A DNA stretch of 64,000 nucleotides from Nitrospirota bacterium (lineage in GTDB: Bacteria; Nitrospirota; Thermodesulfovibrionia; Thermodesulfovibrionales; UBA1546), in assembly GCA_016208915.1 (NCBI GenBank), contig JACQXE010000051.1:1-64000 (forward strand), in the 5' to 3' direction. Below, one piece after another: positions 60,025-64,000 of this stretch. Under the pieces are notes generated by a model. It was not told the origin of the DNA and did not search any database. It saw nothing but the letters and a program-made list of their open reading frames with translations. Numbering within the stretch: the first letter of the stretch is position 1; the number at the start of each line of letters is the position of its first letter. Both the position numbers and the translations under genes were made by a program.

Positions 60025-61080
60025 TTACCATCTTCCCGACTTTGTCACATAGTGAGGATTCGTGGAGCTGTAATGACACGTACCGCAGATATCGCCCATG
60101 TTGGTATCTGTTGTCTTGTTCTTATGGCAGACCTCGCAGTTGTTGTTCACGCCATCACCCCAGTTTGTAGGCTTTGTCTCCATATGCATTGAGTTGTGGC
60201 AGGTAATACAGAGAACTTTTGGAAGTCCGCTTCTTTTTCTGCCATGACCTACAGAGCTCTTGAACTCTGTATTCGCGTTCTGTGCATAGGGAACAGGCTG
60301 ATTCTGGAGGCTGGTATGACAGTTCTCACAGCGCGGGAAACCTGCCTGACCGGGTGTTTTCATGATGCCGTTTGCTGCATCCACCAGAGTTCCATGGCAG
60401 GTTACACAGCCAATAGGATCGTTGGGGAACTTATCTTTATGAATGCCTCCATAACACGGAGATGGATGGCATCTGTAGCATCCATCAGAAGTGGTCTGTT
60501 CACTACTGGGCACCCTGTATGCATGCGATGACATCATCTTGGCGCCTAATACATGACAGTTACGGCATAAGCTTGTGCCTGGTGTCGTTGCCTGATTAGC
60601 TATTGCATGGGGAGGCGGAACTGCATGGCAGCCGTCGCACTTTGCATTCCAGCGCCGGATAACGCCTGTGAAAGTCTTGCCGTCTGCGGTGTACGTAATT
60701 TCGGAGTCACCGCTATAGACCATGACGGCCTGCAGACTCGTCGGAGTAGCGGTGTAAACCTTGTTTGTCGAATCGCCGATTGTCATAGTCCCTGTCTGGC
60801 CGGTAGATGTAACTTTCCAGGTTACCCCGGTGCTTGGAAGTAACACATATCCTTCAGCATCAAAGACCTGCGCTTTTACAGGTGTCCCATTACTCCAGAC
60901 AAATATCTTGTATCCTGCGTTAATCCACCCTGCAGGATCAGCGCAGTACATTCCCTTTGCCGGACGGCCGACAATAAGATTTGTTGGCGGTGGAACAGGT
61001 TTTCCTGCGTATGCTATCGTAAAACCTGCTATCACCGAGGCTGCTACTAACAAACTGATTAAAATTTTGTATTTTTTCAT
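60025..61080 (-). CDS. octaheme c-type cytochrome, exported
   Basis: 351 aa. A signal peptide (ILISLLVAASVIAGFTIAYA) is followed by a beta-rich region without haem (about 30-145) and then eight CxxCH motifs: CDGCH, CRNCH, CYRCH, CVTCH, CENCH, CITCH, CEVCH and CGTCH. It is a periplasmic or surface multihaem electron carrier. No catalytic motif of nitrite or hydroxylamine reductase (such as a CxxCK) was seen, so an electron-transfer role is favoured. It has its own sigma-54 promoter and haem would be attached by the CcsA/ResB pair at 12-14 kb. Confidence 0.92.
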   Translation of the reverse strand: MKKYKILISLLVAASVIAGFTIAYAGKPVPPPTNLIVGRPAKGMYCADPAGWINAGYKIFVWSNGTPVKAQVFDAEGYVLLPSTGVTWKVTSTGQTGTMTIGDSTNKVYTATPTSLQAVMVYSGDSEITYTADGKTFTGVIRRWNAKCDGCHAVPPPHAIANQATTPGTSLCRNCHVLGAKMMSSHAYRVPSSEQTTSDGCYRCHPSPCYGGIHKDKFPNDPIGCVTCHGTLVDAANGIMKTPGQAGFPRCENCHTSLQNQPVPYAQNANTEFKSSVGHGRKRSGLPKVLCITCHNSMHMETKPTNWGDGVNNNCEVCHKNKTTDTNMGDICGTCHYSSTNPHYVTKSGRW

Positions 61081-61241
61081 CTTTCTCGTTCCTCCTTACT
61101 TCTAAGTTTTCAACTTTTTGTGTGATTACTTAATTGTTCAAAATATAGCCCCGCAATCTCACATTGCTTTATCACCCCCCCCATTCTATAGATTGTTTAG
61201 TCATTTGGTATCCCAGAAATCTGTTATTCATATTAAGCATT

Positions 61242-61258
61242 AAGCAAAGGATATGCCA
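61242..61258 (-). promoter_or_regulatory. sigma-54 promoter of the octaheme cytochrome gene
   Basis: On the minus strand TGGCATATCCTTTGCTT carries GG and GC 10 nt apart. Transcription would start near 61232 and reach the ATG at 61080 after about 150 nt. Confidence 0.72.
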
Positions 61259-61330
61259 AAAATTCCCTAAAATAATTCTTCATAAAATCAGCGTGTTGTA
61301 ATTAGGAAAAAGTTTAATGGTGTTATGTTC

Positions 61331-61364
61331 GGTGAAATAACCAAATGCACTTGGTTATTTCACC
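61331..61364. promoter_or_regulatory. 34-bp palindrome between divergent sigma-54 promoters
   Basis: GGTGAAATAACCAA, a 6-nt centre and TTGGTTATTTCACC form perfect 14-bp arms. It lies 72 bp from the leftward -24 element and about 98 bp from the rightward one, a normal position for an enhancer-binding protein dimer or hexamer site. Confidence 0.75.
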
Positions 61365-61462
61365 GATAAGTTCTAATAAAATTCTTTGTGCTGGAAACCT
61401 GAAATTATAAAAGGTGCTGATAATAAAAACTTTGGAATCAACCAATGACCGGATTTGCACGA

Positions 61463-61479
61463 TGGTATGGTAATTGCTT
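61463..61479 (+). promoter_or_regulatory. sigma-54 promoter of the receiver gene
   Basis: TGGTATGGTAATTGCTT has GG and GC exactly 10 nt apart. Start site near 61489, just before GGAGG and the TTG start at 61515. Confidence 0.72.
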
Positions 61480-61514
61480 GTCTTTATTAAGACAGGGATA
61501 ATTTAGGAGGAAGA

Positions 61515-61901
61515 TTGAACAAGATACTGATAGTTGATGATGAACCCTTACTAAGACGCAGTCTTTCAAAGGCAGTTCACAGCAATTCTGTTGAGGTTAT
61601 GCCTGTCAGCACTGGCGAGGATGCGTTAGTTGAGATTGGTTCCTGTTTCTACAGTCTCTGCTTTCTTGATATCCATCTGTCAGGTACAAATGGCATTGAT
61701 ATCATGAAAAAGATAAAGGAGATATCCCCAAAGACTAAAGTAGTAATAATGTCAGCGCATGAGATAACGGATGATATGAAGAAAGAGATAGAAAAAAGTG
61801 CTTATCTTTTTGTCCCGAAGCCTTTTGACCTGTCGCATGTCAAGGCAATTGTATCTGAGGTTTTGGGTGATAACTATTCTAATCCGAATTTTTTTATCTG
61901 A
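61515..61901 (+). CDS. single-domain response regulator receiver
   Basis: 128 aa made of one CheY-like receiver. Acidic pocket VDDEP at 8-12, phosphoacceptor Asp in LCFLDIHLSGTNG near 55, Ser/Thr switch in VVIMSAHE, and the invariant Lys in FVPKPFD near 105. No output domain. The start is TTG with GGAGG 5 nt upstream. It could be a phosphate sink or shuttle for the adjacent histidine kinase. It converges on the sigma-54 activator gene, overlapping its 3' end by 28 bp. Confidence 0.9.
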   Translation: MNKILIVDDEPLLRRSLSKAVHSNSVEVMPVSTGEDALVEIGSCFYSLCFLDIHLSGTNGIDIMKKIKEISPKTKVVIMSAHEITDDMKKEIEKSAYLFVPKPFDLSHVKAIVSEVLGDNYSNPNFFI

Positions 61902-63262
61902 TATCTGAGGGAGTCATAGCTTACATTCAGCAGCTTTGCGGCTATGGTTTTATTATTCCGTGCTTTTTTAAGAGCCTGAAGGATAAGGTTTTTTTCAAGC
62001 TCATCGAGATTTATGCCTGTTTCCGGCAGGATGAAGCTATCCTTTAATTCAGTTTTAGCAGTCAGGGCAAGCGTTGTAAACTCCTTAGGCAGGTGTTCTG
62101 GGAGTATCATTTCTGTATTTTCTAACACAACAATCCTTTCTATAACATTTTTTAACTCCCTTATATTCCCCGGCCAGTTATAGGTGAGCATGCATTGTTC
62201 TGTCTCAGATGAAAAGCCTTTAATTGTCTTTTTGTTATACCGTGTAGAAAAGTATGAAAGAAAATATCTTGCAAGAATAGGGATGTCCTCTTTTCTGTCC
62301 CTTAGCGGTGGTATATGCAAAGAAAATGTGTTAAGTCTGTAGAACAGATCCATTCGGAATTCTCCGCGTTCAACCGCCTCTGACAGATTTCTGTTTGTTG
62401 TGGATATTACAGTTGCATTTACAGGAATTTCTTCCTTTCCGCCAATGCGTCTTATCGTTCTTTCTTCTATCACCCGTAGCAGCTTGCTCTGCAGGCTCAT
62501 TTTCATTTCGCCTATCTCATCTAATAAAAGAGTGCCTTCTCCAGCAAGCTCAAAGAGTCCTTTTTTGTCGGATTTTGCATCTGTAAATGCCCCTTTTTCA
62601 TATCCAAAAAGCTCGCTTTCGAGTAGTAATTCAGGCAGGGCGGCACAGTTTATGCCGATGAAGGGTGCATAGTGCGAAAAGCACAGACTGTGAAGAGAAT
62701 AGTGAATATGCCTTGCTATTAGTTCTTTTCCCGTACCACTTTCCCCTGTTATGAGTATGGTCGAGACGTGTGCATCTGTTATCTTGTCGATTTTGGATTT
62801 TAATCCTTTGATTATAATCGATTCTCCGATGATATCCTTCTCAAAAGACTCGCAGTTTACCTTTCTCAGAAAGTCAACTTCCTGTTTGAGACGTGTTTTT
62901 TCTATGGTATTATTTATGATAATTTTTACCTCTTCTATATTGAAAGGTTTAGTCAGATAATCAGCAGCTCCAAGCTTCATAGCCCTGACGGCAGTCTCTG
63001 CAGTATCATCTGCGGTCAGCATTATTACCTGGGTATTCGTTCCCATGCCTTTGATTTCCTGGAGGATGTCTATTCCGCTTTTTTCAGGAAGATTTATGTC
63101 TAGCATAACTATATCGGGAGACAGATTCTGAATCTTGTTGATAATATCATCTGCTGTGGTTTCTGCAGAAACTTCATATCCTTCACTATTCAAAGCTCTT
63201 GAGAGCATTGAGGTAATGAGTTTGTCATCGTCTAACAGGAATACCTTCCCTTTGCTTCTCAT
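61874..63262 (-). CDS. NtrC-family sigma-54-dependent response regulator
   Basis: 462 aa. The receiver domain has Asp in IVMLDINLPEKSG near 53, then comes the AAA+ domain with Walker A GESGTGKE near 169, the sigma-54 contact loop GAFTDA (variant of GAFTGA) near 217 and Walker B LLLDEIGEM near 237. The C-terminal Fis-type helix-turn-helix (NNKTIAAKLLNVSYDSLRYQIKKFGLE) ends the protein. The histidine kinase starts 17 bp upstream on the same strand. It is the obvious candidate to act at the 61331-61364 palindrome. Confidence 0.95.
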   Translation of the reverse strand: MRSKGKVFLLDDDKLITSMLSRALNSEGYEVSAETTADDIINKIQNLSPDIVMLDINLPEKSGIDILQEIKGMGTNTQVIMLTADDTAETAVRAMKLGAADYLTKPFNIEEVKIIINNTIEKTRLKQEVDFLRKVNCESFEKDIIGESIIIKGLKSKIDKITDAHVSTILITGESGTGKELIARHIHYSLHSLCFSHYAPFIGINCAALPELLLESELFGYEKGAFTDAKSDKKGLFELAGEGTLLLDEIGEMKMSLQSKLLRVIEERTIRRIGGKEEIPVNATVISTTNRNLSEAVERGEFRMDLFYRLNTFSLHIPPLRDRKEDIPILARYFLSYFSTRYNKKTIKGFSSETEQCMLTYNWPGNIRELKNVIERIVVLENTEMILPEHLPKEFTTLALTAKTELKDSFILPETGINLDELEKNLILQALKKARNNKTIAAKLLNVSYDSLRYQIKKFGLE

Positions 63263-63279: not shown

Positions 63280-64000
63280 TTACTGATATACAGGCAAAGC
63301 GATTTTAAACGTAGTTCCCCTGCCTTGTATGCTATCTACGCTTATACTGCCTTTCTGTTCTTCAATAAGCCGTTTAGTGATCGCCAAACCCAGTCCAGTC
63401 CCCTTAGCTTTAGTAGTAAAGAAAGGCTGAAATACCTTGTCTATGATTGCTTTTTCGATCCCTCTGCCTGTATCGGCTATCTCTATTTTAATGGTGTTCT
63501 CAGATGAATCATATGATGTCTTTGCAGTTAGAGTGCCGCCCTCTGGCATAGCATCAATGGCATTCAGCAGCAGATTCAGAAATACCTGTTTAAGTTGCAT
63601 TGGATCAGCCATGGTCTCAGGAAGATGGCTATCAAAGTCTTTTATGATATTTATGGTATCTGACTTATCTGGAGAAAATAAGCTTTTGATAGAAAGAGAG
63701 AGTGAGGCGTCAAGCAGAGTGTTTACATTAACCAGGTTGAACTGTGGTTTGGGTGGTCGGGCGAAACTAAGCAAATCCTTCAACAATGCTTCTATACGCT
63801 TTATCTCGCCAATAACTTTTAATAGTACATCCCTGTCTTCTTCTGGAAGAGTGTTTTCTGTGGAGAACACTTCCATTGATATCTTAATGGCTGCAAGGGG
63901 ATTTTTGATCTCGTGGGCAAGTCCTATTGCAAGTTCTCCGCACATATTCATCTGTTCGGTGCGCTGCATTTTGATCATATGTTCTTTTAGTGAACGTGCC
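63280..64000 (-). CDS. sensor histidine kinase, partial (5' end outside the window)
   Basis: The frame stays open to the edge, reading ARSLKEHMIKMQRTEQMN before the H box, so the N-terminal sensor region is missing. H box GLAHEIKNPLAAI, N box NLLLNAIDAMPEGG, G1 DTGRGI, F and G2 GTGLGLAITKRL are all present, giving an NtrB-like kinase. It is 17 bp from the sigma-54 activator and so its likely partner. Confidence 0.93.
   Translation of the reverse strand, partial: ARSLKEHMIKMQRTEQMNMCGELAIGLAHEIKNPLAAIKISMEVFSTENTLPEEDRDVLLKVIGEIKRIEALLKDLLSFARPPKPQFNLVNVNTLLDASLSLSIKSLFSPDKSDTINIIKDFDSHLPETMADPMQLKQVFLNLLLNAIDAMPEGGTLTAKTSYDSSENTIKIEIADTGRGIEKAIIDKVFQPFFTTKAKGTGLGLAITKRLIEEQKGSISVDSIQGRGTTFKIALPVYQ

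What the first reader, a model, noticed from the sequence alone, without database searches (positions are those of the whole stretch)
61242..61479. Divergent sigma-54 promoters around a perfect 34-bp palindrome link an octaheme cytochrome to a two-component system
Seen: TGGCATATCCTTTGCTT (minus) and TGGTATGGTAATTGCTT (plus), both with GG-N10-GC, flank a palindrome with 14-bp perfect arms (61331-61364). The genes served are an octaheme cytochrome and a lone receiver, and an NtrC-type activator plus kinase lie next door. Inference: the activator binds the palindrome and controls both promoters, a signal-to-respiration circuit where the lone receiver may be a phosphate sink.
Basis: partly seen in the sequence, partly recalled or inferred. 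Interest (0 to 1): 0.72.

Follow-up and report, generated by a model that had tools for sequence, protein, structure and literature searches.

The report
Conserved enhancer for cytochrome genes
A short mirror-image DNA sequence between a cytochrome gene and a signalling gene looks like the docking site of a regulator that, probably under a heme-carrying sensor, switches on electron-transfer genes; related bacteria keep much of the same arrangement.

Summary
The palindrome (61329-61366) has 16-bp perfect arms around a 6-bp centre, the longest perfect inverted repeat in the window. It reads better as two 12-bp dyads, GGTGAAATAACC-type, 22 bp apart. Both sigma-54-type promoters are present and face outward. 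The double site recurs in the genome: 5 of 6 strong pairs lie near good sigma-54 promoters, including one before a 67%-identical octaheme paralog and two in a multiheme-cytochrome cluster. Searching 149 genomes with the motif alone hit five others; three lie at the orthologous receiver/activator/kinase locus, one at the cytochrome cluster. Of 15 orthologous receivers, 15 have a sigma-54 promoter and 9 of 13 testable a double site. New: the kinase sensor has an invariant CxxCHH (23 of 23), is predicted all-helical and sits by a PhnD-like binding protein; the activator has GAFTDA, not GAFTGA (21 of 21 loci). The phosphate-sink idea is unsupported: some orthologous receivers carry PilZ. Binding and transcription are untested; a second GxFTDA activator may share the site. 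New variant of a known kind.

The parts
61329..61366 (.). inverted repeat, 16-bp perfect arms, 6-bp centre; proposed enhancer (UAS)
   Evidence: single locus by blastn in the genome
61331..61342 (+). dyad site 1, GGTGAAATAACC
61353..61364 (-). dyad site 2, GGTGAAATAACC on minus, 22 bp from site 1
61243..61258 (-). sigma-54-type promoter TGGCATATCCTTTGCT towards the octaheme cytochrome, 72 bp from the enhancer
   Evidence: score 13.5 of 15
61463..61478 (+). sigma-54-type promoter TGGTATGGTAATTGCT towards the receiver, 98 bp from the enhancer
   Evidence: score 13.0; a promoter at this place in 15 of 15 orthologous loci
60025..61080 (-). octaheme c-type cytochrome, 351 aa
   Evidence: paralog at G000:C7:11435-12463, 67% identity
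61515..61901 (+). stand-alone receiver, 128 aa, TTG start in the ORF list
   Evidence: Pfam Response_reg; alignment A2
61874..63262 (-). NtrC-type activator (REC-AAA-Fis) with GAFTDA; 3' end overlaps the receiver gene tail to tail
63280..64000 (-). histidine kinase, C-terminal part; continues to G000:C27:64674; the part beyond the window holds the CFGCHH sensor

Best explanation
The element is an enhancer for a sigma-54 activator. A dimer of the activator binds each 12-16 bp dyad; two dyads 22 bp (two helical turns) apart put the dimers on one DNA face and seed the AAA+ ring, which remodels sigma-54 polymerase at two outward promoters 72 and 98 bp away and turns on the octaheme cytochrome and the receiver. 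The same double site elsewhere makes this a regulon of multiheme cytochromes and predicted secreted proteins. The likely activator is the neighbouring GAFTDA response regulator, driven by a kinase whose helical periplasmic sensor carries a heme-c motif and which lies next to a PhnD-like binding protein, so the input is probably a periplasmic redox state or small ligand. Shown by sequence: sites, spacing, promoters, recurrence, cross-genome conservation, invariant CxxCHH, GAFTDA. Inferred: binding, phosphotransfer, heme attachment, signal, looping.
For: Double sites in the genome: 10 rows (5 places, both strands) against 2 control rows at 22 bp and 10 against 0 at 21 bp, <=3 mismatches. Five of 6 pairs with <=1 mismatch have an outward promoter >=12.5 within 250 bp (the sixth 11.5); frequency at non-coding window positions 0.107, binomial 8e-5. 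Motif alone in 149 genomes: 5 others hit, 0 control hits; 3 of 5 at the orthologous locus, 1 at the cytochrome cluster. Orthologous receivers: promoter 15 of 15 (shuffles expect 0.15); double site <=3 mismatches 9 of 13 (expect 0.02); without the window and the three loci first found by the motif, 5 of 9. G018 and G171 intergenic regions, different families, keep both promoters and the double site as blocks. Activator orthologs 57-64% identical with a similar recognition helix. RpoN present.
Against: No binding or transcript data. Four of 13 orthologous receiver regions lack the double site although promoter and activator are kept; one of the nine is weak (3 mismatches). One of five non-own motif hits (G048) is by unrelated genes. 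Nine of 19 activator stretches show no gene with >=4 hemes, some being short. Octaheme orthologs elsewhere lack the site. In this genome the cytochrome cluster has its own GSFTDA activator, so the binder is not unique. Promoter scores use a hand-weighted consensus recalled from the literature.
Confidence: 0.78

Rival explanations
1. The enhancer is real, but its binder is wholly or partly the paralogous GSFTDA activator encoded in the C69 cytochrome cluster; the two share the operator.
For: Only these 2 of 14 activators in the genome have TDA; similar recognition helices DTLRYRLKK and DSLRYQIKK. G021 and G033 have the C69 type and no window type at E<=1e-135, and have double sites of 2 and 3 mismatches at the cytochrome cluster.
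Against: Seven genomes with the site at the receiver locus (G040, G018, G171, G140, G172, G170, G059) have no C69-type match of >=60% identity, only ones of 42-47% or none listed. C69-type orthologs in G160 and G161 lie among what look like type II secretion genes and show no double site with <=2 mismatches in the stretches.
Confidence: 0.3
2. The dyads are the operator of an unrelated dimeric regulator that merely lies near sigma-54 promoters.
For: A GGTGAWWTNACC dyad fits many dimeric helix-turn-helix proteins; no footprint exists.
Against: Outward sigma-54 promoters lie 72-165 bp from 6 of 6 pairs (one scoring only 11.5); in other genomes the site tracks the activator locus. Two dyads two turns apart is the usual enhancer layout (general knowledge).
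Confidence: 0.12
3. The palindrome is a transcription terminator, RNA hairpin or mobile-element remnant.
For: Long inverted arms.
Against: No terminator-like site in 61000-61600, no Rfam match at gathering thresholds; it lies upstream of both outward promoters, so neither would transcribe it. The 301-bp region has no other match in the genome; in other genomes the dyads recur with diverged flanks.
Confidence: 0.02

Closest known systems
DVU3142-Ohc regulon of Desulfovibrionales (PMC4641369, passages seen)
   Same: A sigma-54 activator gene next to an octaheme cytochrome system, with sigma-54 promoters and predicted activator sites upstream, kept across genomes.
   Different: DVU3142 is a single-component regulator with GAFTGA, divergent from an ohcBAC operon; here a two-component activator with GAFTDA, a heme-motif kinase, a receiver and scattered cytochrome targets. 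OhcB/OhcC were not searched for here.
NtrC/AtoC-type two-component sigma-54 activators
   Same: REC-AAA-Fis order; best NCBIfam match AtoC.
   Different: 433 bits against AtoC's cut-off of 714, NtrC 368 against 559; GAFTDA in 21 of 21 loci. GAFTDA is reported in Desulfovibrio DVU2106; in NorR the same residue change (G266D) bypasses repression (PMC2941729, passages).
sCache_heme (DUF3365/Tll0287) heme-c sensors (PMC12889525, abstract and passages)
   Same: Periplasmic CXXCH in a kinase sensor.
   Different: No PF11845 match and an all-helical model nearest to helical-bundle sensors such as Adeh_2942 and NarQ (weak), not a Cache fold.
PrsK/PrsR-type PEP-CTERM control (listing only)
   Same: NtrC-type activator and kinase with sigma-54; some double sites here lie before large predicted secreted proteins.
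   Different: TIGR02915 scores 372 bits against a cut-off of 502.6.

Membership tests
Sigma-54-dependent enhancer/promoter unit | -24/-12 promoter with GG-N10-GC | tested here: met
   15 of 15 orthologous receivers; score uses a recalled consensus
Sigma-54-dependent enhancer/promoter unit | RpoN and sigma-54 activators in the genome | tested here: met
Sigma-54-dependent enhancer/promoter unit | activator binding sites upstream, needed for transcription | tested here: inconclusive
   conserved double dyads by sequence; binding and need not testable here
NtrC-type response regulator | REC + sigma-54 AAA + Fis HTH domains | tested here: met
NtrC-type response regulator | exact GAFTGA loop | tested here: not met
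   GAFTDA; a variant listed in PMC4641369 as compatible with activation
AtoC, NtrC or PrsR equivalog | NCBIfam score above the curated cut-off | tested here: not met
   433/714, 368/559, 372/503 bits
sCache_heme (DUF3365) sensor | PF11845 profile and Cache fold | tested here: not met
   no match at E<=1; all-helical model, pLDDT 77, pTM 0.55
c-type heme protein (kinase sensor) | CXXCH attachment motif | tested here: met
   CxxCHH in 23 of 23 aligned sensors
c-type heme protein (kinase sensor) | covalently bound heme | not testable with these tools
   needs protein
Ohc system regulator (DVU3142 type) | single-component activator divergent from ohcBAC | tested here: not met
   the activator has a receiver domain and is not divergent from the cytochrome gene; ohcB/ohcC not searched
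Phosphate-sink receiver | stand-alone receiver with intact acceptor that draws phosphate from the kinase | tested here: inconclusive
   acceptor present in the window; PilZ in the 2 long receivers scanned, long C-terminal tail in 6 of 10 aligned, Asn at the acceptor in L133; phosphotransfer not testable

The most novel reading that the evidence does not exclude
A previously undescribed redox-sensing respiratory switch: a four-helix heme-c kinase with a PhnD-like ligand protein drives a naturally GAFTDA (in NorR a repression-bypass change) sigma-54 activator. Through a two-dyad operator shared with a second GxFTDA activator it controls scattered cytochrome conduits in several families of one order, with a receiver (REC-PilZ in some relatives) feeding c-di-GMP or phosphorylation state back into the circuit.
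Probability: 0.3. Interest if true: 0.72.

Novelty: new variant of a known kind. Interest (0 to 1): 0.55.

Why it matters
How uncultured bacteria rich in multiheme cytochromes decide when to make them seems little known (my judgement, not searched exhaustively). This gives a named operator, a list of candidate target genes and a candidate heme-carrying sensor that can be tested with purified proteins and a heterologous reporter. A search for six dyad strings found no paper holding them; it covers only the held open-access library.

Tried and rejected
IS21-type transposon ends: considered when tandem dyads appeared; reading the flanking ORFs by eye I saw no transposase, but I ran no profile search for one. 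PEP-CTERM/PrsR regulon: considered because one site lies near what looks to me like an exosortase gene; the activator misses the PrsR cut-off. Terminator or RNA element. Octaheme orthologs as the conserved target: the four records found show no double site with <=4 mismatches in 400 bp upstream (396 bp for L039), and one of four has a promoter >=12 there (L041). Distant kinases: of the 13 loci I fetched at 32-36% identity or so, none showed an activator next door to my eye, but my automatic labels failed to flag activators in any locus, so this is an impression only. Activator loci G161:C62 and G155:C226 gave no double site with <=2 mismatches.

Limits of my statistics: hand-weighted promoter score; mismatch limits set after seeing the first sites; background from one 64-kb window; loci related, not independent; 23 kinase loci chosen by identity from a longer list.

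Full report
What is there. Searches confirm two outward GG-N10-GC promoters and an inverted repeat with 16-bp perfect arms. Each arm holds a 12-bp near-dyad, GGTGAAATAACC, so the 34 bp are two sites at 22 bp in inverted order. The next longest perfect inverted repeat of the window has 12-bp arms. Around it lie an octaheme cytochrome (8 CXXCH), a 128-aa receiver, a REC-AAA-Fis activator convergent with and overlapping the receiver, and a kinase that continues past the window.

The double site elsewhere in the genome. Single 12-mers with <=1 mismatch: 14 forward and 13 reverse against 5 and 6 for the reversed control, so single sites are only mildly enriched. Pairs with <=3 mismatches: 10 rows against 2 (22 bp) and 10 against 0 (21 bp); each place gives two rows. 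Pairs with <=1 mismatch: C27 (this one), C7 (before a 67%-identical octaheme paralog), C31, C37 and two at C69. Five of 6 have an outward promoter >=12.5 within 250 bp, the sixth (C37) 11.5; frequency of >=12.5 at non-coding window positions 0.107. C69 holds genes with 11, 5, 4, 1, 7, 7, 6, 6, 6, 6, 4 and 7 CXXCH motifs (one 7-motif frame is cut by a stretch end), with a 682-aa protein I take for a porin (no Pfam match above cut-off) and NHL-like proteins (my reading). Looser pairs at about 20 bp lie at C66 and C37:12064 (by eye).

Other genomes, by motif. The pair pattern (<=2 mismatches) over 149 genomes of the same order matched 6 including the own one, with 0 control hits. Of the five others, G040, G018 and G140 are at a receiver/activator/kinase locus, G021 at the cytochrome cluster, and G048 by unrelated genes.

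Other genomes, by protein. The kinase sensor over 176 genomes of the order matched 82. I took the 23 loci at >=39% identity, own included. By tblastn 18 of 23 have a full activator ortholog (57-64% identity for those not the query), two are cut by contig ends, three have none in the stretch; 15 of the 18 have a receiver convergent with it. Upstream of these receivers 15 of 15 have a promoter >=12.5 (shuffles expect 0.15); of 13 with >=200 bp of DNA, 9 have a double site with <=3 mismatches (expect 0.02), at 22 bp in seven, 21 in G161 (weak, 3 mismatches) and 19 in G059. The misses are G171a, G140a, G172a and G168. Without the window and the three loci first found by the motif it is 5 of 9. G059's is a 31-bp palindrome of the same dyads. 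G018 and G171, different families of the order, keep both promoters and the double site as blocks.

Second target. Relatives of the C69 4-heme cytochrome: 9 of 176 genomes, own included. A promoter >=13.5 lies within 700 bp upstream in 7 of 9 (G050 has 28 bp of upstream DNA; none in G175). A double site with <=4 mismatches is seen in 3 of 9 (G000, G021, G033), the three with an in-cluster GxFTDA activator.

The regulators. All 21 activator loci (20 at 57% or more including the own, and G050 at 51%) have GAFTDA. In this genome 2 of 14 activators have TDA; one lacks the motif and the rest have GAFTGA or GSFTGA (two read by eye). GAFTDA is listed for Desulfovibrio DVU2106 among forms compatible with activation (PMC4641369, passages); in NorR the same residue change bypasses repression (PMC2941729, passages). 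That it loosens control here is speculation. The kinase sensor has CxxCHH in 23 of 23. Its model is all helical (mean pLDDT 77, pTM 0.55); the nearest solved folds are helical-bundle kinase sensors, no match reaching E 0.001 (best 6.5e-3). A gene of the phosphate/phosphonate binding-protein family lies upstream and recurs in many of the kinase stretches. Several orthologous receivers are longer; PilZ passed its cut-off in the two scanned.

How it probably works. See Best explanation. Which TDA activator binds is open: seven genomes with the site at the receiver locus have the window type and no C69-type match of >=60% identity, while G021 and G033 have the C69 type and no window type; but C69-type loci in G160 and G161 show no double site. 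Cytochrome genes are frequent, not universal, neighbours: 10 of 19 activator stretches hold a gene with >=4 hemes.

Taxonomy. Of the four named octaheme relatives three are Nitrospirae/Nitrospiria records and one is labelled Geobacter; I infer a Nitrospirota member.

Judgement. The kind (sigma-54 activator, double-dyad enhancer, divergent promoters) is known, with a near analogue for an octaheme system in Desulfovibrio. The combination with a heme-motif helical kinase, a GAFTDA activator and a receiver did not turn up in my searches of the held library, which were few and by word.

Noticed in passing
G000:C69 (L082, L047, L083): A 37-kb contig rich in multiheme cytochrome genes with a porin-like 682-aa protein, a PPIase-like gene and its own GSFTDA activator; looks like an extracellular electron transfer cluster with two double sites.
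   Followed up: partly
L049:5281-6675 (kinase, partly beyond the window end): Kinase sensor family with invariant CxxCHH in an all-helical domain; relatives in 82 of 176 genomes of the order, often next to PhnD-like genes.
   Followed up: partly
L122:6068-6730, L133:54-716: Orthologous receivers carry a C-terminal PilZ domain; L133 has Asn at the phosphoacceptor position.
   Followed up: partly
L168:5118-8705: An activator ortholog in G161 lies next to a receiver, a 10-heme 325-aa cytochrome and a 696-aa protein, reminiscent of a porin-cytochrome pair.
   Followed up: no
L166, L167: C69-type activator orthologs lie among what look like type II secretion genes, without double sites.
   Followed up: no
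G000:C31:1340-2019 (L046): A double site with good promoters on both sides lies before a short, apparently degenerate secreted-protein reading frame.
   Followed up: no
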